A stretch of DNA of 54,344 nt from a virus. The position numbers and the translations under genes were made by a program. The notes under the pieces were generated by a model. It was not told where the DNA came from and did no database searches. It saw nothing but the letters and a program-made list of their open reading frames with translations. Within the stretch, counting starts at the first letter, position 1; each line of letters starts with the position of its first letter. Where the stretch lies: IMG/VR virus record IMGVR_UViG_3300023184_000163, positions 1-54,344 of that record; one strand, 5' to 3'. This document shows, one piece after another, positions 9,543 through 31,700 of the stretch.

Positions 9543-9962
9543 ATGAGTCAAGTACAATTAAATGTTGAAGAATTAAAAGGATTTATTAAGCATATGGTTG
9601 GTAACAACCAACATATTCAAAAGGAAGGTAAGGTTCCTGTAGCTATTAATATTGAAGGAGATGCAGGTCTTGGTAAAACTTCTGCTATTATGCAGTTAGG
9701 TAAAGAACTTGATATGCAAGTAGTAAAACTTAATTTATCTCAGTTAGAAGAATTAGGTGACTTAGTTGGTTTTCCTGTAAAAGAATTTGAAATAACAAAT
9801 GCTGAAGGTAAGACTACCTGGATTAATGAATCTCAGATAAATGCAGCTACTGCAAAAGGTTATAAAGTATCAGGAAAAAGAATGTCTCATGCTGCTCCTG
9901 AGTGGATTCAAGGCAAAGGTGAAGGTGGATTCTTGGTATTAGATGATTATACTCGTGCGGAT
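9543..9962 (+). CDS. MoxR-type AAA+ ATPase, exon 1 (residues 1-140)
   Basis: This is the first exon of a gene whose second exon is 11011-11760. Joined, they encode a 389-residue AAA+ ATPase. Walker A is GDAGLGKTS starting at G39. Walker B is FLVLDDYTRAD at the very end of the exon, so the P-loop half of the enzyme is here. Without splicing the frame stops immediately at TAA (9963-9965), giving a dead fragment without sensor or arginine-finger residues. The exon ends in T, as group I splicing requires, and its last seven bases (9956-9962) pair with the intron guide at 10777-10783. Together with the VWA protein upstream it likely forms a MoxR-VWA chaperone-like pair. Confidence 0.85.
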
Positions 9963-10006
9963 TAACAAAATATGCAGTCTAATAGTGTTAGTGTAAATAA
10001 TTTAAT

Positions 10007-10014
10007 TATCTTTG
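10007..10014 (+). promoter_or_regulatory. Possible Bacteroidetes -7 promoter element (TATCTTTG)
   Basis: TATCTTTG matches the Bacteroidetes -7 consensus TAnnTTTG and lies four bases before the homing endonuclease ATG. No convincing TTTG -33 box is visible about 19 bases upstream, so this is a weak call. If used, the transcript would be leaderless or nearly so. Confidence 0.25.
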
Positions 10015-10018
10015 TAAT

Positions 10019-10768
10019 ATGGAAAAATTAAATACACAAACTCTTAAGACAGCATTAAAGAGTATAGGAATCTACAAAATTAAAATTAATGATAAAGAGT
10101 ACATTGGTAGCTCTTGTAATATTGGTCATAGGTTAAAACACCATTTGTGGTCTCTTGAAAATTTAAAACATCATAACAGAACAATGCAAAACTTATATAA
10201 TAAGTATGGTAAAGAAGAAATTTATTTTACTGTTATAGAAGAATGTTCTGATGATATTTTAATAGAAAGAGAAGCTTGCTACATTAGCACACTTAATCCC
10301 TATATAAATCATATACTAGATCCACAAACTCTAGTTAGGGATGATGTATGTAAACAAAGAATGAGTGAAGCTAAGAAAAAATCTTATGCTAATGGTTTAA
10401 AACCTCCTAACCGTAAAGCAGTACATAAGTACTCACTTGATAAAGGTGATTACTTAGAAAGCTTTGAATCTATTACAGCTGCTGCTAGGTCTATTAATGC
10501 TAAAAGCATTAGTGGTATAAGAGATTCTTGTATGAAAAAAGTTTTTTCTGCAGGAGGATTTATATGGTCTTTTACTTATAATATAAAAATATTACATAGA
10601 CCAAAACAATATAAGCTAGAACCAATATTACAATATACTGATGATAATATTTTTATCAAAAAATGGGAGTCTATAACTCAAGCAACTAAAGAACTTAGTG
10701 TCTCTAATATTAGTAGAGCAATAGCTAAAGATCTAACTGCTGGTGGTTATAGGTGGAAAAAAGCATAA
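10019..10768 (+). CDS. Intron-encoded GIY-YIG homing endonuclease
   Basis: A 249-residue protein inside the intron. The GIY-YIG nuclease domain fills residues ~15-105: GIYKIKI begins at G17, EYIGSS follows at ~27-32, the catalytic Arg is in HRLKHH, and the metal-binding Glu is in EREACYISTLNPYIN. A basic linker with NUMOD3-like SEAKKKSYANG (~120-130) follows. Two NUMOD1-like DNA-binding repeats then appear, one from HKYSLDKGDYLESF to GGFIWSF and one from LQYTDDNIFIKKW to GGYRWKK. The enzyme should cut intron-less alleles of the ATPase gene at or near the insertion site and so spread the intron. All key residues look intact, so it may be active. Confidence 0.92.
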   Translation: MEKLNTQTLKTALKSIGIYKIKINDKEYIGSSCNIGHRLKHHLWSLENLKHHNRTMQNLYNKYGKEEIYFTVIEECSDDILIEREACYISTLNPYINHILDPQTLVRDDVCKQRMSEAKKKSYANGLKPPNRKAVHKYSLDKGDYLESFESITAAARSINAKSISGIRDSCMKKVFSAGGFIWSFTYNIKILHRPKQYKLEPILQYTDDNIFIKKWESITQATKELSVSNISRAIAKDLTAGGYRWKKA

Positions 10769-11010
10769 AGCGGGTGGTCCGCAATAAATTCTGTGAATTC
10801 AGGGAAACTCCAGAGATGGACAATCCTGAGCCAAGCATTACAGGGATGTAATGAAGGTGCAACGACTAGTATATGGAGCCTAGAACAGGCAGTAAAATAC
10901 CAAGAGCGCAGAACACATAGAAATATGTGATGATATAGTCTGACCTGTAGATATAATCTAAAAAAAACTACAGAATCATAGGATAAAGAGCCTATGAGTT
11001 AACAATAATG
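10769..11010 (+). ncRNA. Group I ribozyme core
   Basis: The self-splicing core lies after the endonuclease stop codon. The guide sequence is at 10773-10783. The box order is P (around 10796-10809, AATTCAGGGAAACT), Q (10820-10836, AATCCTGAGCCAAG), R (10856-10871, GTGCAACGACTAG) and S (10930-10944, GATATAGTCT). P7 forms between GACTA (10864-10868) and TAGTC (10936-10940). Additional stems are P6 extension CATTACA/TGTAATG, P8 CACATA/TATGTG around a GAAA-like loop (10913-10928), P9 CTGTAG/CTACAG and P9.1 CATAGG/CCTATG. These boxes match the usual phage group I consensus. Subgroup (IA-like) is not certain. Confidence 0.9.
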
Positions 11011-11760
11011 CACCGCTTTATGCAAGCAACAATGGAGATCTTAGATAGACAAGAATATGTTTCTTGGAAACTTCCTAAGAACTGGCATGTAATCTTAACT
11101 ACTAATCCAGACAATGGTGACTATAATGTTACTAGTCTTGATGTAGCTCAGAAAACAAGATTTATCTCATGTGAGCTTAAATATGATGTAAAAGTATGGG
11201 CTAAGTGGGCTGAGACCGCAAATATTGATGGTAGATGTATAAATTTTATGTTAATGCATCCTGAATTAGTTACACAAAAGATTAATCCAAGATCAGTAAC
11301 TACATTCTTTAATGCTATTAGTTCTATTGATAAGTTTGAACAAGAATTACCTTTAATCCAAATGATTGGTGAAGGTTCAGTTGGTCCAGACTTTAGTTCT
11401 ATGTTTACTATGTTTATTAATAATAAATTAGATAAGATTATTTCTCCGGAAGATATCTTAACTAAAGATGAAGCATATGTAATGGGAGCATTAGATGGTG
11501 CTGTAGGTAAAGATGATGATTTTAGAGCAGACTTGTCTAGTATTATTGCTACCAGAGTAATAAATTATTCATTAGTTTATTCTGAGAAAAATACAATTAC
11601 AGATGCATTTACTAATAGACTAATTAAACTTACTACAGATTGTAATGCATTTACTGATGACCTTAGATATTATATGATTAAGGAAATTGTAAATGGAAAT
11701 AAACTTAAGTTTAGTAAGTTGATGATGAACAGTGATGTTGTAAAAATGGCTGTAAAATAA
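11011..11760 (+). CDS. MoxR-type AAA+ ATPase, exon 2 (residues 141-389)
   Basis: This is the second exon of the ATPase. An ATG at 11008-11010 is the last three bases of the intron, so it only appears to be a start codon. The exon supplies the rest of the AAA+ module: HRFMQATMEILDRQEYVSW just after Walker B, sensor 1 N172 in LTTNPD, and R190 in AQKTRF as putative arginine finger. It is followed by a helical lid and a C-terminal helical region to residue 389. The block NPDNGDYNVTSLD is typical of the MoxR-like subgroup found with VWA partners. A hairpin terminator follows within 20 bases, so this is the last gene of its segment. Confidence 0.85.
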   Translation, partial: HRFMQATMEILDRQEYVSWKLPKNWHVILTTNPDNGDYNVTSLDVAQKTRFISCELKYDVKVWAKWAETANIDGRCINFMLMHPELVTQKINPRSVTTFFNAISSIDKFEQELPLIQMIGEGSVGPDFSSMFTMFINNKLDKIISPEDILTKDEAYVMGALDGAVGKDDDFRADLSSIIATRVINYSLVYSEKNTITDAFTNRLIKLTTDCNAFTDDLRYYMIKEIVNGNKLKFSKLMMNSDVVKMAVK

Positions 11761-17063: not shown

Positions 17064-18281
17064 ATGCCAAAGAAAATTAAAGATTGCACATGGGATTACC
17101 TAACAGGAATTCCTTTACCGGTACATGCTGATACATATACAGTTATTAGTCATGAAAATGTAATGGATTACACAAAAACAGCATTAATTAATGCAGGTTT
17201 TACAATTGAAAGAGAAGAATATAGAGCAACTGCTGATGGGCAGATTGCTCAAGGAGTTTATAGATTACACTATGGAACTGACCAAGAGTTATCAATGATG
17301 CTTGCATGGACTAATAGTTATAACAAACAAGTAAGGTTTAAGTGTGGTGTTGGTGCTTATATAAATACTAACGGCACTGTGATGGTATGTGGAGAAATGG
17401 GTAACTGGGCAAGAAAACATACAGGAACAGCTGACACAGAAACAATAGCTACAATTACTGATCAAGTAAGTAATGCTCATATGTATTATAATCAATTAGT
17501 ATCTGATAAAAATGTTATGCAAACTATTAGCATGACTAAAAGAAAACAAGCACAGTTATTAGGGATATTATTTGCTGAATATCAAATACTTACTACTGAA
17601 CAAGCTAGTATAGTAAGACAACAGATGGATAAACCAAGTTATGTGTTTGCAGATAATAATAGTCTATGGGCATTCTATAACTATGTTACTTTAGCTTTAC
17701 AGCAGTCACATCCTAAAACATGGATGGAAGATCAAAGAATATTACATTATTTTATTAATTCTGTAAATAATTTTCCAGTGTGCAGTCAACCTGCACAGAT
17801 CCCTGAAGATGAAGTTATAGTTACTGAAGACACTGAAGTTAATTTTATTTTTAAAGATATAATAGATGCAATTGATCCTAATCAGATTAGTTTGTTAGAC
17901 CAGATTGCTGACATGGAGGCTGACATGATGGATGAAGATATTAGATATGCTGCAAATAATGAAGAAGAAGTTATAGATGAAATAGAAGTAGAAGAACTTA
18001 CTCTACAACAACCTGAAGAATCTATATTGCAATATACCGATAGAGATGGTAATACATTTGAGTCTATAGAATTTCATAATGCAGCTGTAGAATCTTCATT
18101 AGAACCTACACCAGAAGAACATGAGTTGTATGAAGCTGATTTAAATACATTAGAAACAATTGTAGAAGAAATTACTTTACCTAAACCTAAAGTTCAAGCA
18201 GGAGCTGATTTTGATTTAGATTTTAGTATTTCTAATACAGAAAGTAATAAAGAAGAAGACACTATGTCTGACTTTTTTTAA
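17064..18281 (+). CDS. DUF932-like protein with acidic tail ending in DFF
   Basis: A 405-residue protein one base after the polymerase stop. Residues ~85-135 contain YNKQVRFKCGVGAYIN, then GNWARKHTGTADTETIATIT, which resembles the DUF932 phage/plasmid family, where a conserved RHTG follows a Cys-containing strand; this match is by eye. A helical region (~145-245) follows. From about residue 250 the chain is acidic and low in complexity, with several QPEE/EVEE stretches, ending EEDTMSDFF. The tail again recalls SSB-type acidic tails with terminal Phe. DUF932 proteins are of unknown function. The gene closes the replication block, followed by a strong terminator. Confidence 0.6.
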   Translation: MPKKIKDCTWDYLTGIPLPVHADTYTVISHENVMDYTKTALINAGFTIEREEYRATADGQIAQGVYRLHYGTDQELSMMLAWTNSYNKQVRFKCGVGAYINTNGTVMVCGEMGNWARKHTGTADTETIATITDQVSNAHMYYNQLVSDKNVMQTISMTKRKQAQLLGILFAEYQILTTEQASIVRQQMDKPSYVFADNNSLWAFYNYVTLALQQSHPKTWMEDQRILHYFINSVNNFPVCSQPAQIPEDEVIVTEDTEVNFIFKDIIDAIDPNQISLLDQIADMEADMMDEDIRYAANNEEEVIDEIEVEELTLQQPEESILQYTDRDGNTFESIEFHNAAVESSLEPTPEEHELYEADLNTLETIVEEITLPKPKVQAGADFDLDFSISNTESNKEEDTMSDFF

Positions 18282-18352: not shown

Positions 18353-21300
18353 AACGTCCTAATTTACTTGAACTATTTGCTAAGTTTTTAATTCCTGTTT
18401 CAGGATCACCCGTACTACCTGTAAAACCAATAGTTTTAAGAATATTATTTATAAGTTTATAATCTCCTTCTTCTTCCCAAGGATATGGTCCAGCATCTCT
18501 TTGATATTTAGCTGCATCTTCTCCAGTTAATCCATTAAAAATATTAGCTGCAATTTCTCCATATAAAAGCAATGTGTTTGCAAATACAGAACTTGTAGAA
18601 GTGAGCATTTTACCATAATCATCTAATCCAAAATTAAGTCCCATTATTTTAGGTAAAGGTATAAAAGCTGTAGTTTCTGCATTTACTCCTTGCATTAATA
18701 ATAATGTTTGATTTATCATATAACCTTGAGTATCATAACCTTTAGTTCCAAAAGCTTCAGAACGTTCTGCTATTTTTTTCCATTTATCTTCATCATCTTC
18801 ATCATAACCAAATAATAAAGCTGTTAAAAGTGCAAAACTTGTAATAAAAAGTGACTCAGCTGCAAGTTTTTTTAAAGCTATTTTTTCATCAGCACGTAAA
18901 TATTTAGCTTTTTGTCCTCTGCTTTTAATCATTTCCCACATAGCAGAAAATGCAGTTAAATAATATCCTTTTACAGTTTTACCAAGTGCCCAATCATAAC
19001 GAGGCATAAATTTTGGTGTTAGTTTACCTTTTTCCCATATAACTTCAGAACCAAATCTATTTATAAACATTGGAGTAAACCATTTTCTCATAAACATATA
19101 TAATCTATATAAAGTATATTTATTACCTTCTGGTTGACCCATAGAATCATATGCTCCAAATAATGCTCTTGAAGTTCCTTGTACTTGATTTCTAAACATA
19201 TTAAAACCTTCAGCTTTTGCAATTATAATTTCATCACCTTCAGCTAATTCTAAAACTGAACTAATTTTATTTTTTGCTATTAACTCTTCTTCAGTTACAT
19301 TGTATTGTTTAGCAATTAAAGCTAAAGTTTCTCCTTTAACAAAAGTATGATAAACATGTGTATTATTCCATTTAGGATGTATTCCTTTTTTTAATGTAAT
19401 TATTCCTTCAGAATTATTTTCCCAAGCATCTACATAACGTATTAATTGAACAGTGCCATCAGGCATAGTCATATCAACTTTTTGTGCATTTAAAAATGAA
19501 CCAAATAATGATAATGCAACTTCCATTTCACCAAACTTTCTATGCATATATAGCCATTCTCCATCAATTAAGTCTTTATATAAACTTCTTGAAACTGAAC
19601 GACCCATATTATCTTTTGTTCTAAAAGCAGGATCAAACATTTCTATTAATTGAGTAGTAAATGCTGGAGGACCTACTGCATATATTCCTTTTTTAGATGA
19701 CCAATTAATCATTGATTTAAAAGCCCATGATCTACCAAATGCTAAATCTTTTAATCCTATATGTTCATTTCCTGATGCTTCAATTATTAATTGAACCATT
19801 GCACCATATTTGTTTTTTAAATCAGAAGGTATATTAATAGCTAATGAAGCCATAGCAGAAATTTTTTGCATTCCATTTAGCAAAGCTGTTATTTTTGGAT
19901 AGTTTTCACTAGTTTCAGATTGATGTACACCATAAAATTCTCTTTCAAATAAAGATTTAACTTGTCCTAATACATTATTTTCTGAACCTTTTTTAGTTAC
20001 ATTTTCTAAAACACCATAAGCATTATATATATCTCTTCTAAATTCATTTTCTGCTTTAGGTTGAGCTTCAGAACTTGACAAAGTTTCAATTAAAGATTTC
20101 ATTAATGGTAAATTTTCTTCTAATACACTATATGTTTCTAATGATAAAGAATATCTCATTAAACTTTTAAATACATCTGGAGAAACTACATTAGGTTCTA
20201 AGTTATATAATCCTGATACAGGTATATAATTCATTTTTTGTCCAAAAGCATCTGTATTTACTAAATTGTTTTCAGGATTATAATTAAAATTATTTTCAAC
20301 ATTTACTTTAGACTGTCCAAACATTTGTTTAAAAAATTCTGTTGTATTTGCTTTTATTTGATTATATCTTTCAGAAGCATTTCCACTTTGTAAAACATCT
20401 AATTTAGAATCAATAACATATCTAGGAACATCTAAATATAATTTTGTTACATTAGCTTTATTTTCTTGACCTTGTAAATGATATTCAGTAATTGCATTTA
20501 GTAATTCAAAAGTTGCACTATTAGATCTTTTTAAATCAGCATATTTTTTATTCATATATTTATCTGTTTTTGCTCCTTTTGATGTACCATCATACATTTT
20601 TGGTAAAAAATTACCTTTATTATCTATTATTTTCCCAATATAAGTGTTTTTATCTTCTTCTGTTAAATTATATGGTAATGTTCTATATTTATCTTTTACA
20701 TTAAAAACTGAATGTCTTATATTTGGAACACCCATAATTAAAATTTCTTCTCCTGTAGCTTCATTTAATATTTTAGTAGTTTTAATTAATGAAGGATCCG
20801 ATGGAACAGTAATATTATTAACTACTGTTCTTTGATATTTATTTACATAATCTTTTTTTGTAATATCAAAAGTTTTTTTAGTAACATGGTTTAATATAAA
20901 CCATTCTTGAAAAGACTCATCATTAGCTACAATATCATAAAATTCATCTGAATTAATAAATGCATCAACATCATCACTTAATATTTGAGTATTAAGGTAT
21001 TTTGATAAACGAAAGTTTAATTCATCCATATAATAATCAGTAGGTAAAGTAGCAGATGAATCACCTAATTCATTATAAATAGCATTTAACTCAACAGTTT
21101 CTTCAATTGTAAGCCCTTTTCCTGATGATTTTTCTAATAAATATAAATATCTTTTTTCTTCATCTTTTGTTAAGGTTCTTTTTTTGGCTGAAAGAACATA
21201 GTTTATTAATTCTTCACTTTCAGTTTTAGATAAACCTCCTACATTTTTATTGTTAAATCTATAATCATTAATTTTTTGTTGTAAGTCTTTAATTTTTTTT

Positions 21301-24300
21301 ATTTTTTCAACACCTAATGCTTTTGGATCAGGTTGTCCTTGTTCATCTTTATATGTATATATTAAATCACCAATTTCTTTATAATTAGTACTTACATTAA
21401 AGTCAGATTCAGAAACTTTCATTTTTTCTTGTAGTTCTGACAATCTTGTTAATAATTCTGATCTTTTTTCATAATATTTAGGATCATAAACAAGTTTGGT
21501 GTTCATTTTAATCCAATCTTTTAATTTTACATTGTACTCATCACTATTAATTTTTACACCCTGTGTTATTAATTGATTTATAAATTCATTATATCCTTTT
21601 TGTAATGAACCAGGAACAGCAACATATTCATTAAAGTCTTTAGTTGCATTTCTATGTTCTCTTAAAAGTAAAGCTTTACTAAGATCATAAATTTCATTTG
21701 CTTCATCATCTATTTTAGGAGTACCATCTTCATAATACAATGAATAAAGAGATTGATACTTATGCCATGCTGCATCAGTAATAGTATAACTTTCAAATCT
21801 TTCTAATTCATTATGCAATTTATTTGATTCTGCATTAAACTCATCTAAAGCTAATTTTCTATCTAACCAAGCTAACTGACCTATTTTTGAGTCTTCAAAA
21901 ATTTTATCTTTTTCATAGTATTCAGGAACAAATTCTCTGTTCATGTAATCTTCATTAAAAGTTTTTAATTCTAACTCAGCTTTTTTAAGTTTATCAACAT
22001 CACCATCTTTACGTGCTTCATCTACATTAAACTCTAAGTTATCTAGATCATATCTCCAACCATTTCCAAAAGCATTTAAAAAAGTATAAACTTCTCTTTT
22101 TTCCATCTTATTAGTTTCTTTATTAAAAAAAGAAACACTATCTAAGTCAGAAACTAAATTTAACATGTCTCTTGAATTCCATTTACTAAATTCACTAATT
22201 TTTGGTAAAAGATTTTGTAATTTATTTCTAAAAGATAAAGATGCTTTCCACATTCTCTGTTCTGCTTCTTTTTTCTGATTATCAATATAAATTGCTAATG
22301 AACCTACTATAGGACTATTACTAGAACTATAACTTTCCATAAATCTATTTAAAATAGAAACATCTTTGTATTTACCTTCTAATGTTTTAATTATTGTATC
22401 TTTATTAATTATAAAATAATTAAATCTATCAATTATTTCTTTAATATATTTTTGCTCAACACCTTTATTTGATAATTCTTCTAAATCTTTTTCAGTAATA
22501 GTATTATTTTTAACTTTATTAAAAAAATCATTAAATTCTGATTCTGTTAATTTACCATCAATAGCTGATAATAAATCTTTATTTGCTTGAACAGTAACAA
22601 AATCACTCATATATTTTGTATTTTCTACAAAAAAGTTAATTGAGTTAATTTTAGAAATTTCTACTGCAATTTTTTCCCCACGTATAATATTTAAATTTAT
22701 TTGACTTAATAATTGTGAAAATGGATTTGTATTATCTACTACAAAATCTTTAGTAAGAATACCATCAATATCTGATAATGATTGATACCATCTAGCTAAT
22801 GCATTTCTATATAAACTTAATAAGTAAATATCATCTCTAGAACCAAAATTTTTCTTTTTCTTAAGTTTTTCTAAATTTTCTATAATTATATTAGTAACAT
22901 TATTAGTTACTTCTAAAGAGTTAACTAAAGATAAAGCACGGTTATTTAAATCTTTTAATCTTGCAGCTTCAGCATCTAATGCATTATCTAATATAACATC
23001 AATAGAATTATTATTAGACTTTAAAATAGTTTGATATGTTCTTAATGCTTTTTGTACAGCTGGAATTAATTTATTTGTTCCTTTTTCTATAAAACTTTCT
23101 AAAACTATTTTTTTAGTATTTTCATTAGTTCTATGTTTTCGAGCCATTTCTAATATTGATTGATTAGCAGCATACTGAGTATTAATAGACTCAGTAATTG
23201 CTTTTGTAGATGCACTATCAATTAATACTTTAGCTTTTTCTGTTTCATTTCTTAAAAACATTGCAACATCTTCTTCTTTAATGTTACTGGATTCAAAAAC
23301 AAAATCTTTTTCTAAAAGCATATCTGCTAATTTTTCTATAGATGTATTTACATTTAAATCTTTTATAACTTTTTCATTACCAAATACTTTTTTTAATAAT
23401 AATTTTATTTGATATAATAAATTTTTAATAAAACTATCAAAACCTTTAGTTTCAATTTTATTTGCTAATATATTAGCAGCATGTGTTTGTAATGACCAAG
23501 CTAAAGCTTCTTCTTTAAACTTAATTGAATCTTTTTCAAGTTCTGGATACATTTCAGTTACATAATCAACAATTTGTTGACCTTCTGTAGTTGATTCTAA
23601 TAGATTAAATAAATTATTAAATAGTTCAGAATTAGATACAGCAATTCCTTGTAACAGAGGGTGTGAAAATTCATGCAATACTGTATTAATTGATACATTA
23701 TCCCCTACAGTATAAATTGTACCTGCAAAATAAAATCCAGGTTCACCTTGATATGGAACTTTAGTTTTTTTTAATAAATCAATTGCTTGTTCTTGAGTTA
23801 TGTTTGCATAATTTACTTTAAGACCTAATGATAATCTTTGACTTAAAACAGATACTATTTCTTTTGCTCTTGCATTTTGTATAGTAGATAAATCAAATTC
23901 AAAAGAAGGTTGAATTAAATTTTCTGAATATCTTTGAAATACTATATTATCAAGATCTTTATTAGGTTCAATAGTTAATTCATTCCAAGTATTACCATAC
24001 TCATCTGTAATTTTTATTATACGTTCTTTACCAAATTGTTTTTTAAGAATATTAAATAAAGTGTTTTCATAAAAAGTATAAATAGGTCTAAGCTTAGCAA
24101 AACCACCTTCTTCTAAATCTTTTAATTCTTGCTTATACGTATTTAAACGATTTTGTAAATCATTAATAGCTTCTCTAACTCCTTTTTCATAAACATCTTT
24201 TGAATAAAAAGGTTTTACTTCTTCATATGTTTGAGTTTGTAATTTTAATATTTGTTCTTCACTTCCTTTTATAATATCTAAAAGATTTTGTTTTCTTCCT

Positions 24301-25727
24301 TGTAATGTTTGATGCCCTTCTACTTTACTAGCTGTATCACCAGTAGGAAATAATACTTTTTCATATCCTTTCTTAGCACTATCTTGCATGATAGATTTAA
24401 CAAAGAATGTTACCCAGTTATTGTCTTTGTTTAGTAGTTGTAAGAATTGATTTTGTTTATTATTTTCTTTACTAAGATAACTTTCTGCTATATTTTTTTC
24501 ATCTTTTGTTAATTCTTCTCCTTGCTCATATCTAAATATTATATCTTCAATATTAACAGGAGGGACCTCTCTAGTTAATAATTGTTTATCCCTACTTTTT
24601 TGAAACAAATCAGATTGTACTTCTAGTATTCTACGGGATCTAGAATTAATCCCTATAGAATCTTCTGCTTCTTTCTTTGTGTTATAGATTCCTAGTTTTG
24701 TCTTTGTGCGTCTATCGGTCACATGGAATTGATTGTTATACTCAAATATTTCTTGTCCTCCTATATATTTAGTAGGGTAACTACTTCTATCTTCTATAAA
24801 ATTATAGTAAGTATACAAACTATTCTGTACATGTTTTGTAGAAACATATTCATCACTTCTAAACCACCCTATACCCTGGTCTGTAGCAAACTGAGCATGT
24901 CCTTTAATAGAAGGAGTAATTTCTGGTGTAGCTATTTCTTGTTCTGTATAATTAGTACCACCTGGAACTGATAGATTAGAATAGTATTGAGTATTTCTAT
25001 CTCCTAAATTTTCAGTTTTTTTATATTGTTCAGTAGCTAAATTATATTCTTCTTTAGTTATTACATTACCATTTTTTCTATAAGTATCTATTTTAGAATA
25101 ATCATCACCATTTAAAGTAAATCTATCATATCCTACATTAGCACTTTCAATAGATTCAGTAGCAATATTAATATCAACAGTATAACTATAAGCAGCAGCA
25201 ATAGCTACAGCTATTTCATCTTTAGTCATTCCTGGTTTAGCAACTTCTTTAAATAGTTCAAGTTGTTGATTAGATACTCCTTGTTTTTGAAGATCATTTA
25301 ACCAACCTTGAAGTTTAGAAGTTTCAAAATTACTTCTATTTATTTTACCTAATGTTTCAACTATCTTTAATGAATAATTAACACTTGGTGTTTTCATAAA
25401 CATAGGTTGATCTGTATCAGGTCTATTTTCATATTCATTTACAAGAATATCTAACTGAGTAAATAATGCTTCATTAGGGATTGCTCTATATACATTATAT
25501 GTAGAGTCTCTATAATATGGAGTATCTTTTAAATAAATAGATTTTTGTTCCCCAGCAGAAAATAATTTTTCATCACCAGTTTCTAAATTATATTTAGTTT
25601 TAGCATACTCAGTTAAAGTATTATTAAGCTCATTAAATAATGATAAATCAAGAATTTTTCTTATATCATCGGTAGCACCATTTTTAATTAAATAGTCAAG
25701 TGAATTAATTTTTGAATTACAGCTCAT
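18351..25727 (-). CDS. Giant virion-associated polyvalent protein (metallopeptidase-like, LysM-like)
   Basis: A 2458-residue protein, last of three giants. The N-terminal ~600 residues include ILEVQSDLFQ (~365-375) and KVLFPTGDTASK (~455-468), blocks shared with phage polyvalent proteins. A metallopeptidase-like site VLHEFSHPLLQG has H685, E686 and H689, with a following EEALAWSLQTHA helix (~737) that can supply the third ligand. Residues ~900-1750 are long charged helices. A LysM-like module (~2125-2172, with KGETLALIAKQYNV) and a membrane segment (~2292-2310, SFALLTALLFGY) lie near the end. It is probably packaged and injected, acting at the cell wall, membrane or in the cytoplasm. It starts five bases after the RNA polymerase gene ends. 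Roles are inferred. Confidence 0.75.
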   Translation of the reverse strand: MSCNSKINSLDYLIKNGATDDIRKILDLSLFNELNNTLTEYAKTKYNLETGDEKLFSAGEQKSIYLKDTPYYRDSTYNVYRAIPNEALFTQLDILVNEYENRPDTDQPMFMKTPSVNYSLKIVETLGKINRSNFETSKLQGWLNDLQKQGVSNQQLELFKEVAKPGMTKDEIAVAIAAAYSYTVDINIATESIESANVGYDRFTLNGDDYSKIDTYRKNGNVITKEEYNLATEQYKKTENLGDRNTQYYSNLSVPGGTNYTEQEIATPEITPSIKGHAQFATDQGIGWFRSDEYVSTKHVQNSLYTYYNFIEDRSSYPTKYIGGQEIFEYNNQFHVTDRRTKTKLGIYNTKKEAEDSIGINSRSRRILEVQSDLFQKSRDKQLLTREVPPVNIEDIIFRYEQGEELTKDEKNIAESYLSKENNKQNQFLQLLNKDNNWVTFFVKSIMQDSAKKGYEKVLFPTGDTASKVEGHQTLQGRKQNLLDIIKGSEEQILKLQTQTYEEVKPFYSKDVYEKGVREAINDLQNRLNTYKQELKDLEEGGFAKLRPIYTFYENTLFNILKKQFGKERIIKITDEYGNTWNELTIEPNKDLDNIVFQRYSENLIQPSFEFDLSTIQNARAKEIVSVLSQRLSLGLKVNYANITQEQAIDLLKKTKVPYQGEPGFYFAGTIYTVGDNVSINTVLHEFSHPLLQGIAVSNSELFNNLFNLLESTTEGQQIVDYVTEMYPELEKDSIKFKEEALAWSLQTHAANILANKIETKGFDSFIKNLLYQIKLLLKKVFGNEKVIKDLNVNTSIEKLADMLLEKDFVFESSNIKEEDVAMFLRNETEKAKVLIDSASTKAITESINTQYAANQSILEMARKHRTNENTKKIVLESFIEKGTNKLIPAVQKALRTYQTILKSNNNSIDVILDNALDAEAARLKDLNNRALSLVNSLEVTNNVTNIIIENLEKLKKKKNFGSRDDIYLLSLYRNALARWYQSLSDIDGILTKDFVVDNTNPFSQLLSQINLNIIRGEKIAVEISKINSINFFVENTKYMSDFVTVQANKDLLSAIDGKLTESEFNDFFNKVKNNTITEKDLEELSNKGVEQKYIKEIIDRFNYFIINKDTIIKTLEGKYKDVSILNRFMESYSSSNSPIVGSLAIYIDNQKKEAEQRMWKASLSFRNKLQNLLPKISEFSKWNSRDMLNLVSDLDSVSFFNKETNKMEKREVYTFLNAFGNGWRYDLDNLEFNVDEARKDGDVDKLKKAELELKTFNEDYMNREFVPEYYEKDKIFEDSKIGQLAWLDRKLALDEFNAESNKLHNELERFESYTITDAAWHKYQSLYSLYYEDGTPKIDDEANEIYDLSKALLLREHRNATKDFNEYVAVPGSLQKGYNEFINQLITQGVKINSDEYNVKLKDWIKMNTKLVYDPKYYEKRSELLTRLSELQEKMKVSESDFNVSTNYKEIGDLIYTYKDEQGQPDPKALGVEKIKKIKDLQQKINDYRFNNKNVGGLSKTESEELINYVLSAKKRTLTKDEEKRYLYLLEKSSGKGLTIEETVELNAIYNELGDSSATLPTDYYMDELNFRLSKYLNTQILSDDVDAFINSDEFYDIVANDESFQEWFILNHVTKKTFDITKKDYVNKYQRTVVNNITVPSDPSLIKTTKILNEATGEEILIMGVPNIRHSVFNVKDKYRTLPYNLTEEDKNTYIGKIIDNKGNFLPKMYDGTSKGAKTDKYMNKKYADLKRSNSATFELLNAITEYHLQGQENKANVTKLYLDVPRYVIDSKLDVLQSGNASERYNQIKANTTEFFKQMFGQSKVNVENNFNYNPENNLVNTDAFGQKMNYIPVSGLYNLEPNVVSPDVFKSLMRYSLSLETYSVLEENLPLMKSLIETLSSSEAQPKAENEFRRDIYNAYGVLENVTKKGSENNVLGQVKSLFEREFYGVHQSETSENYPKITALLNGMQKISAMASLAINIPSDLKNKYGAMVQLIIEASGNEHIGLKDLAFGRSWAFKSMINWSSKKGIYAVGPPAFTTQLIEMFDPAFRTKDNMGRSVSRSLYKDLIDGEWLYMHRKFGEMEVALSLFGSFLNAQKVDMTMPDGTVQLIRYVDAWENNSEGIITLKKGIHPKWNNTHVYHTFVKGETLALIAKQYNVTEEELIAKNKISSVLELAEGDEIIIAKAEGFNMFRNQVQGTSRALFGAYDSMGQPEGNKYTLYRLYMFMRKWFTPMFINRFGSEVIWEKGKLTPKFMPRYDWALGKTVKGYYLTAFSAMWEMIKSRGQKAKYLRADEKIALKKLAAESLFITSFALLTALLFGYDEDDEDKWKKIAERSEAFGTKGYDTQGYMINQTLLLMQGVNAETTAFIPLPKIMGLNFGLDDYGKMLTSTSSVFANTLLLYGEIAANIFNGLTGEDAAKYQRDAGPYPWEEEGDYKLINNILKTIGFTGSTGDPETGIKNLANSSSKLGR

Positions 25728-25732
25728 TATTT

Positions 25733-28700
25733 TTATATTTTACAAGTAAAAGGATCTTCTTCTAAACCAAAGTTATCTAAAATTTCTTGATCTGAGATGC
25801 CTTGTCTATTTTTTACTAATTTTTGCAAGTCTTTATACATTGTAGAACCTGGATTTAAAAAACCAATAGGTTGTTGATATAGTTCTTTTGAAAGATGTAT
25901 AAATAATTCTTTAGGCATTTCAGTAACACTTCCATAACCTGTACTTAAAAATGCAACAGGTAAACCATCTTTAACTAATGTATTAATTAACTCAAATTGT
26001 TCATTATAATAATTAATAATATTGTTATAAAAATCAGATGGTAAATCTTTCATGTTATCAGTCATATTATTCTGTGCTACTGGTAATCCAATAGACATTT
26101 CTGATGCAATATTTTTAATAACTGATTTACCGGTTGCTTGTGCCTTATTTTGTAAAATAGCAATTGAAGTTGGGTAAACAAAAGTAACATCAGTATTTTT
26201 AGATAAAACATTATTATAGTTAGTTGGAATAAAATTAATATCATCCATTATAAAAACATTAGGATTTTTTGTTTCCATTAAACCATATCTTTCATTTGTT
26301 TTAACAACATCTAAATCTTCTTCAGTACTAACAGAAGGTAAAATGTCAGACTTACTTGTTTTTTTCATATTAGATAAATCATCAAGATTAAAGTCAAGTA
26401 AATAATTTTGGAATCTACCTTTATCAGTTTTAGATCTATTATTTTCTCTAATAAATCTAGAATATAACATATCTAAAAATTTATTTGCTAAAGTATTATC
26501 TTCTAAAACATTGATTAATTTTTTAGATTCATCATTTACAAGATTTATAAAATCATTATACTGTACAATATTTGTAAAATTAAATTTAGTTTTATTAATA
26601 CCTGTTTGCATAAATGCATAAAAAGGTAACTTTGAAAAGAAATCACTTATCATAATATTTTCTGCATCATTGTCTACTTTTTTAATACCAGGATTAGAAA
26701 GATCTAATAAATTTTTATGATATAAATTAGATATATCATTAGTAAAATCTTTTTCAGCTACATATAAATTAAACATTGTTTTTGCAGCATTAGGTTCATT
26801 TTTAATCTTATTTATAATTGCATAATTACCTTGCAATTCAGTTTTATATTTATTAATAATATTATTAAATTTAACAGCAAATGCTTCTTTAGGATCACTA
26901 AACATGTGATATGGATTTAATGTATTTTCTAAAGCTTTATTTGTAATAAATTTTTCATAAGTAAATCTTTCTGCTTTTGTACCGGAAAACTGTGGATACA
27001 TTTCTTTTATAGTTTTTAATTCAGAATTAAAAGAATATAATTTTTTTATATCAGACATAGAATATATTGATCTTAAGTATTCTCTTTCAGCTACAAATTT
27101 TATATATTCTCCTTCATTAGATTTTTTATCTAAACGGAAATGAGAAATTGATAAAGGATACAAACCTCTTTTAAAATAACTATCTTTTTGTTGTGAATTG
27201 ATATCAAAAACATTTCTAGTAAAGTCATCTTTTATTGCTTTTTCATCTACATATAAAACTTTATTACCTTTTTTATCTTCTTTTACATATGCACCAAATT
27301 TTAATTCATCAACTAAACTAACTGGTATTGTTTTATTAAGAGTATATGATTTATAAGTGTCACTTAATTTATATTTTCTTGCAGCATTTTGGAATAAAAA
27401 ACTAATCATAGCATTTCTAAATGAATTTTTAAATGCAGTTGTATTATTTTTACCAAATGTTTTAAGAGTATCTTTTCTTATTTGACTATTTTTAGTTATT
27501 AAATAACTTGATACAGCATCATTATATCTTAATGGAAATATTAAACTATTAATTGCAATAGATAGTTTACCCATAAAAAATGAACTTATAATACTACTTT
27601 TTTGCATAGCATTTACTAAATCAGGTTCTAACTTACTATTAAATTCTAATAATTCTAAATTTGCTTCTGTTTCTTCAACTTCACTACCTGAGACTTTTAA
27701 TGATGTGTCAGGATTAGATGCCATTTTTAATTCAGTTAAACCTGTAATTTGTTGTTCAATTTGTAAAAAATGTAAAAACATTGCTAATGAAAATTCAGTA
27801 GATATCTTATCAGGATTTGTTTTAGAATCTTTAATAAGATTATACATTTCCTTTTCAGTAAAATAATCATTATTTCTATTTTCAAATACAGCATTTGCTA
27901 ACTCAATTCCTTTGTTATATCTTCTTTCATTAGTTGATAATGATTTTGCAGTTTCTGGTCCAAAATATTTTTTAATAACATTAGAAGCAGAATTAAACTT
28001 AATTAAATTAGGATCTCCTGGAGATTTTCCTAATACATCAGCATAAGTTGATTTTCCTAAATTTTGTTCTTTTACATACTCTCTTACTAAAGGTTGTGAA
28101 ACAAAATAAATAGCTTCTTTAACCGGTACACCTGTTTTAATTAAATATAATAATAAAGGTGCAACTTCATAGTTACCTTGAATAAAAAATATCCAAGCAT
28201 CTTTTTCAACGTCAACCCAACCATTCATCATTTGTGAAAAAACATCTGAGATTTTATTTTTTTTATCAACGTCATATTTATTAGATATAGAAATTAATTT
28301 TACACCATCTTTAAATACCTTATTATGTCTTAACCATAACATTGATTTTCTTTCTTTCTCATTATGTAAAAATGTATCTGGCATAGCAGCACCACCATTA
28401 GTTTCTATAGAATTTATTATAGTATGAAATTTATTTTCTATTGCTCCTAATCCTAGTGTTCTTTTACCTACAACATTTGATTCATGTTTATATATATTAT
28501 ACAATGCTTCAAATACTCTTGTTGGGCTTATAGAAGATTTTTTTGAACCATCTTTATTTTTTTGTTTAACACTTTTATTAAGTTTATCAGAAGATCTATT
28601 TATATACGGATTATAATCCATTACATATTGTGATAAATCATCAGCAATATCTTTTAATAAATATGTTCCATTAGGAGTTATAAGAGATATATAATTTTGT

Positions 28701-31700
28701 GGTAATTCTAAAATTCCACGGACACTATCTATTAAATTATTTTGTAATGATTTTTTTTGCATATTTAATGCAAATGCTTTGTCTTCTTGTGATACTGTAG
28801 GATCTGCTAAGTATTCTTTAAGTTTATTAAAAGATTTACTATCATTATCTGAAGTAAACATTTGTTCAGGTAATGTACCGTCAGCATTTAAATTTGCCAT
28901 ATATAATGTTAACTTATCAATGTCAAAGTCAGCTCCTGATTTAGCAACTATTTCTGAAGGAGGAATAATAATATTACCGGCTTGTGCAGGTAAAAAATGA
29001 TAAACTTCCATAAACTCCATAGAGTTTAAACCCTGTACTGGTATTCTAACACCAACAATAGTAACTGCTTTTCTATTTTGACCATCATTTAAATTTAACC
29101 ACTCATTATTCTTAATAAGTTCATTTAATTTATCAAGAGTTTTAATTTTATTTCCATCAAGATCATTAAGATTAAGTAAGTTTTCATAATCACCTTGTAT
29201 AGCAATCATTATTTTCATTGCTGCAGTTTTACCATCTTTTTGTTTATGATAAGTTGGTAAAAAATTAGACCCTACATATTTTTTTATATCTTCATCAGAA
29301 CCTAATCTTAATTTAGGTTTTTTAAATGTATTTGTATAAAATGCAGCTGAAACTTGTACTAAAGGTTCTCCATTTATTTGTTGCTTTATAACTCTTTTAT
29401 TAATAATTGACATTATTAATTTTTCAATTTTAGCAGCTTCAGGATGAAGAGATAAGTCAAACTTTAATTGACCTGAATCTAAAACATCAATAAAATCTAT
29501 AAGATGATCTCCTATGACATCATCAATTTCTAAGTTATCTCTTATTAGGTTAGCTAATTTTTCTAAACTATCACTAGACTTAGGTGAATAATTACCGTTG
29601 TTTTCTTCAAAACCTATTTCATTTAATAAATCTAATTTTAAAGTTTCAGTATAATCATTTACATCATTTAAATACTTTTTTACTGCAGGATTTGTAATCT
29701 TATCTTCATTTGTAGTATCTATTATACCTTTTTCATACAAACCTTCTAAAATAATAGCTCTTAATTGAGTTGAAAATATAGAACTTTTTTTGTATGAAGA
29801 ATTTATTTCAGTTTGATTTTTTAAATATTCTGCAAAAATTGTATTTTCAGTAAAAATTACATCTTTATTAAAAGAACCATCTTCATTTATAACTACATCA
29901 CCTTTACCAATATGAGATACTTTAGAACCTGATTCAAATAGTACATAATCTATTCCTTGTTTCATCATAGCATCATGTAACATATCTTGATATCCATTTT
30001 CACTTGATAAATTTGGAATAAGAGGTGATAAAGAAAATTTATGAAAAGATGTAATTGGTAATATTTCAGTTTTAATATTTCCAAAATACTGTAATTTGTA
30101 AGGAGGAAAATATTGTATTACATCTTCTACAGATAAAGAGTCTCCATTTACAATTTTTTTATATAATAACTCTTGATTATCACTCCAGTTACCTTCTAAT
30201 TCTTTTAACATACGATAACTTTCTAAACTGATGTGACCTTGACCATCACCTTCTTTCATGCCTAAATATTCACTTAATGTTTTTTTAGCAATTTCAGCAG
30301 CATTAACATTATCTCCTAATCTTTTTTTAATAGATTCAGTTAATTCTTTTAAATACTCTTTATAATATACAGATTCTTTTATTTCTTTTTCTTTTATAAC
30401 AGCTGTTTTTAATGTACCATCATAATTTTTAATTTTATAATTTTTTTTATTAGCATATAATCTTGGGAAAAAAGATTTATCATTTATATAAAATTGTGCT
30501 TGAATATCAGATCTAAAACCTAGACCACCAGATGCTAAACCAGCATTTCTTTTATGAAACTCTTCTTTATCATGGTTATACTGTACTAAATCACCATAGG
30601 CTAATATAATAGTCTCGTATTTATGTATCCATGAATTATAAGTATAAGCTTTTATTAATACTTCATCTACTTGAAGTTTGTTTAACCCTTGCTCAAAACC
30701 TTTTTCATATAAAGTTTGATCTATAAATCTAGCTGACTCAAGTTTATTTAAATTTAAAGCAGTTTCTTTATTAAAATAATTTAAAATATCTTTTTTAATT
30801 TCTTTTTTTAAATCATAATTTTCTTCTCTTTCTAAATATTCTATTAAATTTTCTTTTATTTTATATAATTTTTCTTTAGTTTCTTCTGTTAAAACATCAT
30901 CAAATGCTGTAAAAACTGATCCAGCCATAACAACAGTACCATTTTGTTTTTCAACTTCTCTACTGTATCCTGCCCAATCAGACATTACATCTATATTATC
31001 ATTAAATCTATTTATTCTTTCTAATTCACCGGCTAAATAACCTAACATAATATAAAAGCCTTCAGTTTCACCTTCTCCACTATTTTTAGGTTTAAAAGAC
31101 TCAATGTCTATATATAAATGATCATCAGATTTATTTGGATATGATTCTATTTTTTGTGAAGATAAAGACATAGCAGTTTGTTTAGAAGCATGTCTCATAA
31201 ACTCTTCAACACCACTTAATAACATTGTATGTAATTCTTGTAAAAACTTACTTGTTCCATCTAAAGCTGCAGTTACTTCACCAGTATACTCATTTTTTTC
31301 AGTATCAATTAATTGTGTTCCGGCAACATTATTTAATGTTAATTTTACATCTACAAATTCTGAACCTTTTTTAACTTTTCTTTTAAGTCCATAATTATCA
31401 GCTTCTATATCATCTAAATAAAAAATAGAATTTAATAATTGTGAATATTTTGAATGAGGATTGTTTTCATTTGACAACCAACGCATGTGTTTATATTTCC
31501 CATTAGGATCAGCTTCTTGTCTTGTAAGTTCTTGAAAACTATTAGCACTATTAATAGATGTAATTACTCTTGTAATAGTATTATCAACTATTTGTTCCCA
31601 TAATCTATTTCCATCAGGGGATAAAACACTAAAATTTGAAAAACCATCAGACCATTGAACTTGTAATTCAGCTAATAATTTTATACTATTATTAACATCA

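What the first reader, a model, noticed from the sequence alone, without database searches (positions are those of the whole stretch)
9956..11014. Group I intron placed immediately after Walker B of a MoxR ATPase, with exact splice sites
P1 (9956-9962 with 10777-10783), P10 (10773-10776 with 11011-11014), the U before the 5' site and the terminal G agree on one splice model. The site is the most conserved codon run of the gene (DDYTRAD-HRF), as expected for a homing element. Introns in a MoxR gene of a crAss-like phage are, to my knowledge, not a usual location.
Basis: partly seen in the sequence, partly recalled or inferred. Interest (0 to 1): 0.75.

Follow-up and report, generated by a model that had tools for sequence, protein, structure and literature searches.

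The report
Mobile intron with long exon guide
A piece of probably self-removing RNA, carrying its own DNA-cutting enzyme, interrupts an ATPase gene of a crAss-like phage; it is an ordinary kind of mobile intron, but it seems to find its downstream splice site with an unusually long guide that changes in step with the gene it sits in.

Summary
Confirmed, and larger than stated. Window 9963-11010 (1048 nt) is a group IA2-like intron (RF00028, 82.5 bits, threshold 50) with a GIY-YIG endonuclease gene (10019-10768) in the P1 loop, splitting a MoxR-like ATPase. Nine intron-less alleles with 95-98% identical DNA show the exact empty site; 49 distinct alleles, the window's included, carry the intron there. 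P1 is as proposed. P10 is not 4 but 13 pairs (10763-10776 with 11011-11023) and overlaps the endonuclease's last codon and stop. It covaries with the 3' exon (0 of 20,000 permutations as strong). The window's intron arrived recently: exons are 15-16%, introns 3.6-3.7% diverged from L082/L083, and 9 of 22 differences to intron-less L005 lie within 24 nt of the site, reaching +21, beyond P10: probably co-conversion. Three other GIY-YIG introns hit this gene elsewhere; two have 11-pair P10 helices. Group I introns in crAss-like phages are known; one search found none in MoxR, and passages of four papers gave P10 of 4 to about 7 pairs. Splicing and cleavage were not tested.

The parts
9543..9962 (+). 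5' exon of the MoxR-like ATPase gene (residues 1-140, ends DDYTRAD)
   Evidence: PHROG 1297 ATPase
9956..9962 (+). P1, 5' exon strand TGCGGAT; U at 9962 is the last exon base
   Evidence: GCGGAT in 49 of 49 distinct intron-bearing alleles; alanine codon GCG in 5 of 166 intron-less
9963..11010 (+). group I intron, 1048 nt, terminal G at 11010
10019..10768 (+). GIY-YIG homing endonuclease gene (249 aa) in the P1 loop; last codon and stop (10763-10768) lie inside the P10 guide
10763..10776 (+). long 3' exon guide (P10 5' strand) GCATAAAGCGGGTG; G10774 bulged
10777..10783 (+). P1 3' strand (internal guide sequence) GTCCGCA
10789..10795 (+). P3 5' strand (pairs with 10907-10913)
   Evidence: 100% paired, 3 of 7 pairs with changes on both sides
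10799..10829 (+). P4 (10799-10803/10825-10829) and P5 (10809-10812/10817-10820)
10830..10858 (+). P6 (10830-10832/10856-10858) and P6a (10836-10842/10847-10853)
10864..10868 (+). P7 5' strand GACTA (pairs with 10936-10940)
   Evidence: invariant, so no covariation evidence
10869..10900 (+). P7.1 (10869-10872/10897-10900) and P7.2 (10878-10880/10888-10890)
   Evidence: 3 of 4 and 2 of 3 pairs with changes on both sides
10914..10929 (+). P8
10945..10973 (+). P9
10976..10997 (+). P9.1-type hairpin (my label)
   Evidence: 6 of 7 pairs with changes on both sides
11011..11023 (+). P10 3' strand: first 13 bases of the 3' exon
11011..11760 (+). 3' exon of the MoxR-like ATPase gene (250 codons with stop)
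9954..11031 (+). presumed co-converted exon tract around the intron (-9 to +21): outermost near positions that differ from intron-less L005
8346..9533 (+). neighbouring VWA/metallopeptidase-like gene (DUF2201), a usual partner of MoxR-type ATPases (partnership recalled)

Best explanation
A mobile group IA2-like intron with its own GIY-YIG endonuclease. Steps: (1) the endonuclease cuts an intron-less MoxR-like allele of a co-infecting phage near the RAD|HRF codons (inferred). (2) Repair copies the intron and a short stretch of flanking exon, about -9 to +21 (supported by sequence), which overwrites the target's own codons with GCGGAT|CACCGCTTTATGC, the bases the intron needs to pair with. (3) In the transcript the 5' exon pairs with 10777-10783 (P1) and, after the first cut, the 3' exon pairs with the 13-pair guide 10763-10776 (P10); the exons are joined and the 389-aa ATPase restored (pairing supported by covariation, catalysis inferred). 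(4) The guide overlaps the end of the endonuclease gene, so a ribosome finishing the endonuclease would cover the guide: translation of the enzyme and splicing probably exclude each other in time (inferred, weakest step).
For: Core: RF00028 82.5 bits; 21 members, the window included, keep 97.3% of cells paired with 42 of 70 pairs changed on both sides, 0 of 500 shuffles. Splice sites: 245 uninterrupted loci, 166 distinct. P1: position -7 still pairs in 47 of 49 alleles as T-A, G-C, A-T or G-T. P10: own guide and exon pair at mean -13.8 kcal/mol over 11 exon classes, 0 of 20,000 permutations as strong; counted in register with one bulge allowed, 39 of 49 alleles have 13 pairs, 1 has 15, 5 have 8, 2 have 7; window -19.9 kcal/mol, T4 td -1.2, T4 nrdB +1.5. 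Mobility: window exons 15.2-15.6% from L083/L082 but introns 3.6-3.7%, while its 9 nearest exon relatives (1.3-3.3%) have no intron; presence needs at least 35 changes on a 201-row exon tree with 43 intron rows. Co-conversion: 9 of 22 compared differences to L005 within 24 nt, P 9e-9; GCAACAATG at +16 to +24, beyond P10, in 26 of 32 intron-bearing against 8 of 126 intron-less alleles coding ATM. Endonuclease: Pfam GIY-YIG over cut-off, I-TevI catalytic domain E 2e-10.
Against: No splicing or cleavage data. In the swap test own pairing was best in only 7 of 11 rows and 8 of 11 columns; L122's guide pairs better with another exon class, and L149/L150 are weak (7 of 200 shuffles as strong). L097 and L146 have only 2 and 3 pairs by the strict count (mismatch near the site), though both form a longer helix further on. 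Narrow exon divergence would also follow from selection for P1/P10 pairing alone; two of 12 close pairs, both against L154, show little excess (P 0.12 and 0.02). In L147-L150 P1 has a C.C mismatch. The RF00028 search of the L136 record listed two other places but not its MoxR intron. The 35 changes come from a sample chosen partly by intron presence, and shuffled labels give 35-43. The T4 comparison has only 8 and 5 intron bases available upstream of P1.
Confidence: 0.9

Rival explanations
1. The intron is an ordinary group I intron whose P10 is 4-5 pairs; the rest of the complementarity between 10763-10772 and the 3' exon is a by-product of conserved codons (TTTATGC) or serves something else, such as marking the DNA site.
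For: TTT ATG C is common in intron-less alleles too, so part of the match needs no selection; published P10 helices are shorter: 5 pairs in Tetrahymena (PMC10020454), 4 in Pf-WMP3 (PMC3428280), about 6 optimal for trans-splicing (PMC6155759), passages read; alignment columns 18-22 of the guide show no double changes.
Against: Where the exon changes, the guide often changes with it over its length: L136 (position 12, A-U for G-C), L137/L151 (8 pairs of unrelated sequence), L147 (15 pairs), and two unrelated introns with 11 contiguous pairs at other sites.
Confidence: 0.2
2. The exon signature GCGGAT|CACCGC reflects selection for splicing after insertion, not co-conversion during homing.
For: From -7 to +6 the signature bases lie in P1 or P10.
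Against: The shared silent bases at +18 and +21 lie beyond P10 (26 of 32 against 8 of 126), and intron-less L029 and L168 carry the full signature without an intron.
Confidence: 0.2
3. The intron is vertically inherited and was repeatedly lost, rather than repeatedly gained.
For: L029 and L168 look like alleles that lost an intron; exon and intron distances correlate overall (Spearman 0.75, 861 pairs).
Against: The window's intron is four times closer to L082's than the exons are, and its nine nearest exon relatives lack it.
Confidence: 0.08
4. Assembly chimera or unspliceable insertion that destroys the gene.
For: Single metagenome contig; no RNA evidence.
Against: 49 distinct alleles with the same boundaries, 48 of them on other contigs, and open frames on both sides.
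Confidence: 0.01

Closest known systems
Group IA introns of T4 with GIY-YIG endonucleases (td with I-TevI, nrdD with I-TevII)
   Same: Same ribozyme class, U.G at the 5' site, terminal G, GIY-YIG enzyme whose catalytic domain matches I-TevI
   Different: Here the endonuclease gene lies in the P1 loop upstream of the guide (its place in the T4 introns is recalled: peripheral loops behind P1); P10 -19.9 kcal/mol against -1.2 for td; host gene MoxR-like
Pf-WMP3 DNA polymerase intron with I-PfoP3I (PMC3428280, passages read)
   Same: Phage IA2 intron without P2 and with an endonuclease gene overlapping ribozyme elements
   Different: HNH enzyme, 4-pair P10, gene starts in P6a
Introns of Crassvirales (PMC7886860, passages read; DnaB gene of Kolpuevirus frurule split around a GIY-YIG gene)
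   Same: Group I introns in crAss-like phages are known and can be dense; [quoted passage not shown] the frurule place has an RF00028 match of 36.5 bits, under the cut-off
   Different: 'moxr' occurs 0 times in that paper; a coarse duplex test at the frurule place showed no significant long guide
Engineered trans-splicing ribozymes with extended guide sequences (PMC6155759, passages read)
   Same: Lengthened pairing between ribozyme and exon
   Different: There by design and in trans, P10 optimum near 6 pairs; here natural, in cis, 13 pairs

Membership tests
Group I intron | Conserved P3-P9 core | tested here: met
   RF00028 82.5 bits, threshold 50; 57 core pairs, 85.7-100% of cells paired per helix, compensatory changes
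[quoted passage not shown]
   U at -1 and G in the guide in 49 of 49
Group I intron | Intron ends in G; 3' exon pairs with the guide (P10) | tested here: met
   G in 49 of 49; P10
Group I intron | Self-splicing or splicing in vivo | not testable with these tools
   needs RNA
Subgroup IA2 | P7.1 and P7.2 linked by a GUA sequence (criterion as quoted in PMC3428280) | tested here: met
   P7.1/P7.2 with compensatory pairs; AGUAAA between them in the window (sequence; by eye)
GIY-YIG homing endonuclease | Catalytic domain with GIY, YIG, R, E, N residues | tested here: met
   Pfam GIY-YIG 25.8 bits, cut-off 22.6; G17 Y19 Y28 I29 G30 R38 E83 N97 invariant in 12 of 12; I-TevI match; residue roles recalled
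GIY-YIG homing endonuclease | DNA-binding tail | tested here: inconclusive
   NUMOD1 E 0.0012, 19.5 bits, under cut-off 22.8
Mobile (homing) intron | Patchy presence, exon/intron discordance, co-conversion | tested here: met
Mobile (homing) intron | Endonuclease cuts the intron-less site | not testable with these tools
   needs protein
MoxR AAA+ ATPase | Profile or fold match | tested here: inconclusive
   AAA_5 17.5 bits, cut-off 22; PHROG 1297 ATPase for both exons; midasin AAA E 4e-6; low-confidence fold (pLDDT 62) matches AAA+ proteins, FtsH best, NorQD sixth at E 1.5e-3
Crassvirales | Giant RNA polymerase with DxDxD motif (role of the motif recalled) | tested here: met
   3537-aa protein, 22% identity, E 4e-15, DFDID against DLDVD; 3 of 4 longer relatives match too
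Crassvirales | Major capsid protein | tested here: inconclusive
   one C-terminal capsid piece of cr111_1 found no match in 4 of 4 long relatives; single-sequence query without positive control

The most novel reading that the evidence does not exclude
The guide (10763-10783) is complementary to about 20 nt of joined MoxR mRNA across the splice junction (13 P10 plus 7 P1 pairs). After splicing the free intron RNA could stay on, or rebind to, MoxR mRNA, including that of intron-less competitors that carry the matching signature, acting as an antisense or reverse-splicing agent, and its release could depend on translating ribosomes. The long P10 would then define a class of introns in which one stretch encodes the endonuclease's C-terminus, the stop codon and the exon guide at once.
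Probability: 0.12. Interest if true: 0.75.

Novelty: new variant of a known kind. Interest (0 to 1): 0.52.

Why it matters
P10 has been described as relatively weak, perhaps because it must open during splicing (PMC6155759, passage), and the P1-P10 duplex has to come apart to free the exons (PMC10020454, passage). A natural family that keeps P10 helices of 7-15 pairs in 47 of 49 alleles, plus 11 pairs in two introns at other sites of the same gene, questions that view and gives ready-made sequence series to measure exon ligation and product release. The family also suggests that co-conversion installs the very exon bases that the intron needs to splice, which would let it enter divergent alleles safely.

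Tried and rejected
Whole-window Rfam scans found no intron, and a joint scan of six loci found none even where genome search later did, so an empty wide scan is no evidence here. DNA similarity to the phage collection (58 records, 40 listed) gave matches covering 4% of the query, the intron core. RNAalifold put a few exon bases into pairs I consider spurious; I used the hand-written structure instead. A conserved bulge in P10 was considered and dropped: L137, L146 and L147 pair without it. A first idea that P10 in L137 used the U.G guanosine was wrong and was corrected by the alignment. P10 in L357 is not significant (58 of 1000 shuffles as strong). A coarse duplex test at two Crassvirales places with a GIY-YIG gene beside DnaB was not significant (172 and 115 of 200), but splice sites were not defined there and the second place (L365) has no RF00028 match. 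The fold of the ATPase was too poor to place the junction. Capsid search negative.

Rows dropped: of 357 loci, 11 had no usable junction on one side (among them L163/L164 with another intron, and L145, which has this intron but an odd exon 1); L340 and L357 were removed from the 51 distinct interrupted alleles because they are other introns; the tree used the 205 alleles long enough, 4 with stop codons dropped; one search used 34 of 49 intron alleles with an intron-less neighbour within 12%; one search shows 12 hand-picked closest pairs; A2 holds 21 of 49; one search used 163 of 166.
Full report
OBSERVATION. Exon 1 (9543-9962) ends ...DDYTRAD, then a stop codon follows at once; exon 2 (11011-11760) starts HRFMQ; joined they give one 389-aa frame. 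P1 is 9956-9962 with 10777-10783, seven pairs with U.G at the splice site; the intron ends in G. A narrow Rfam search gives RF00028 at 10725-10960, 82.5 bits against a threshold of 50, E 3e-21, and a second tool agrees. Two scans of the whole window did not list it.

EMPTY SITES. The nine closest have 95.5-97.9% identical DNA over 1170 nt, and three have 100% identical protein in the best segment. Over the scans up to, 245 of 357 loci had contiguous exons, 166 distinct alleles; some loci are the same contig met twice.

OCCUPIED SITES. Searching with the endonuclease gave 58 loci; 57 show this gene's exons at exactly this place, 51 on both sides and 6 on one side because the locus ends; exon identity to the window goes down to 53%. 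L139 (39% identical) is cut off before any exon. A profile of 12 endonucleases added 13 more loci, all in this gene. After removing duplicates there are 49 distinct intron-bearing alleles, the window among them. So at 47% identity or more this enzyme was seen in this gene only; remoter relatives (28-37% in the rows listed) sit beside other genes of crAss-like phages.

RIBOZYME. On 21 diverse members, a hand-written structure with P3 to P9.1 and P10 has 97.3% of cells paired and 42 of 70 pairs with changes on both sides; none of 500 shuffles and no slide comes near. P7.1 and P7.2 place it with subgroup IA2 by the criterion quoted in PMC3428280 (passages). P7 itself does not vary and says nothing either way.

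LONG P10. The window scores -19.9 kcal/mol with 0 of 200 shuffles as strong (0 of 1000). Counted in register with one bulge allowed, 39 of 49 alleles have 13 pairs, one 15, five 8, two 7; L146 and L097 have 3 and 2 by this strict count because of a mismatch near the site, but form a helix of 9 and 10 pairs by energy. For T4 td and nrdB, whose splice sites I set from the intron-less phage ZCEC14 (nrdB by eye), the same measure gives -1.2 and +1.5, with the caution that few intron bases precede P1 there. Across 11 classes of 3' exon, own pairing averages -13.8 and no permutation of 20,000 reaches it. Examples (partly by eye): L136 changes position 12 on both sides; L137 keeps 8 pairs with an unrelated sequence; L147 has 15 pairs in a row. 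Against this: own pairing is the best in only 7 of 11 rows and 8 of 11 columns, L122 is better matched to another class, and L149/L150 are weak. Papers seen in passages describe P10 as formed with nt 2-8 of the 3' exon and relatively weak, optimum near six pairs in trans-splicing designs (PMC6155759), five pairs in Tetrahymena (PMC10020454), four in Pf-WMP3 (PMC3428280), and four mutagenised guide bases within a six-pair P10 in a Tetrahymena construct (PMC7877785). Searches with 'group I intron': 'extended P10' 0 papers, 'P10 pairing' 2, 'P10 helix' 16, 'P10' with bacteriophage and homing endonuclease 22; of these I opened five in passages. Only this open library was searched, so absence from print is not shown.

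OVERLAP WITH THE GENE. The endonuclease's last codon GCA and stop TAA (10763-10768) are guide bases. A ribosome ending there would cover the guide and P1 strand; that translation and splicing compete is inference. Endonuclease genes that overlap the ribozyme core are known in general (PMC3984707, figure legend passage).

MOBILITY. On a tree of exons without 45 nt on each side of the site (201 alleles, 43 with intron), presence changes at least 35 times; 100 label shuffles give 35-43, mean 39.5, so presence is nearly as scattered as chance. The sample was drawn partly by intron presence, so frequencies are not estimates. The window's exons differ by 15.6 and 15.2% from L082 and L083 but the introns by 3.7 and 3.6%; its nine nearest exon relatives, 1.3-3.3% away, have none. 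This points to a recent lateral gain. Overall exon and intron distances still correlate (Spearman 0.75, 861 pairs).

CO-CONVERSION. Against L005 (intron-less), 9 of 22 compared differences fall in the 48 nt around the site, P 9e-9; 10 of 12 close pairs examined have P under 0.001, the two exceptions involve L154, whose site already carries part of the signature. Over 34 intron alleles and their nearest intron-less neighbours, mismatch is 0.22-0.34 from -12 to +6 and 0.03-0.11 elsewhere; 116 intron-less control pairs show 0.07-0.08 there. GCG at the last alanine: 49 of 49 against 5 of 166. Most of this could be selection for pairing, but the silent haplotype GCAACAATG at +16 to +24, past P10, is in 26 of 32 against 8 of 126 alleles that encode ATM. 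Intron-less L029 and L168 carry the whole signature and look like precise losses.

A GENE HIT REPEATEDLY. L163/L164 have another GIY-YIG intron after LEELGD, L340 one nine to ten codons downstream, L357 one two codons upstream (exact sites by eye). Their cores match RF00028 at 60.8, 56.8 and 41.2 bits, the last under the cut-off. P10 has 11 contiguous pairs in L163 (5 of 1000 shuffles as strong) and in L340 (1 of 1000), but not in L357 (58 of 1000). In the first two, the endonuclease gene again runs into the guide (by eye).

HOST. The ATPase halves match PHROG 1297, relatives annotated MoxR-like at 26% identity, and sit behind a VWA/metallopeptidase-like gene; Pfam AAA_5 is under its cut-off. 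The 3537-aa protein matches the RNA polymerase of Crassvirales phage cr111_1 around its DxDxD motif, 22%, E 4e-15, and DNA polymerase B matches Cellulophaga phage phi14:2 (Crassvirales) among 945 records of many phages. A capsid query was negative in 4 of 4.

KNOWN AND NEW. Group I introns in crAss-like phages are established (PMC7886860, passages). A search for papers naming both group I intron and MoxR gave one, on another subject by its title and abstract. New as far as I could see are the host gene, the single-site family of 49 alleles, and above all the long covarying P10 fused with the endonuclease gene. I file it as a new variant of a known kind.

Noticed in passing
L125:3334-3780: Inside a member of this same intron (1523 nt instead of about 1048) a second, LAGLIDADG-like gene (GWLVGIIDGEGCFYG; label by eye) sits in the P4/P5 region: a mobile gene nested in a mobile intron.
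   Followed up: partly
L163:1244-2299, L164, L340:about 291-1397, L357:about 1325-2497: Three other GIY-YIG introns at other places in the same MoxR-like gene; two with 11-pair P10.
   Followed up: partly
L029, L168 (and partly L068, L070, L075, L154, L171, L251, L253, L311): Intron-less alleles bearing the intron-type exon signature in full (L029, L168) or in part, possibly scars of intron loss.
   Followed up: partly
L127 record 107435-107740 (L393); L136 record 32212-32458 (L392) and 32729-32966; L152 record 21479-21613; L357 record 23683-23952 (L394): Further group I intron matches elsewhere in records that carry an intron in the MoxR gene; five long records with intron-less MoxR had none.
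   Followed up: no
window 25736-36346 (-): 3537-aa protein with a remote match to crAss-like RNA polymerase including a DFDID motif.
   Followed up: partly
window 18354-25727 (-) and 17064-18278 (+): 2458-aa protein with a weak LysM-like PHROG match; a DUF932 protein beside DNA polymerase B.
   Followed up: no
L147-L150: Members in WNRAD-type ATPases have a C.C mismatch in P1 (guide GTCCCC against GCGGAT), as if the guide came from another site.
   Followed up: no
L361:1263-3552 and L365:626-3343: GIY-YIG genes split or adjoin the DnaB helicase gene of two named Crassvirales phages, with a layout like this intron; RF00028 36.5 bits at the first, none at the second.
   Followed up: partly
window 9963-11010: Rfam's fast filters lost an 82.5-bit intron in a 54-kb scan and again in a joint scan of loci, so introns of this family are easily overlooked in phage annotation.
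   Followed up: partly
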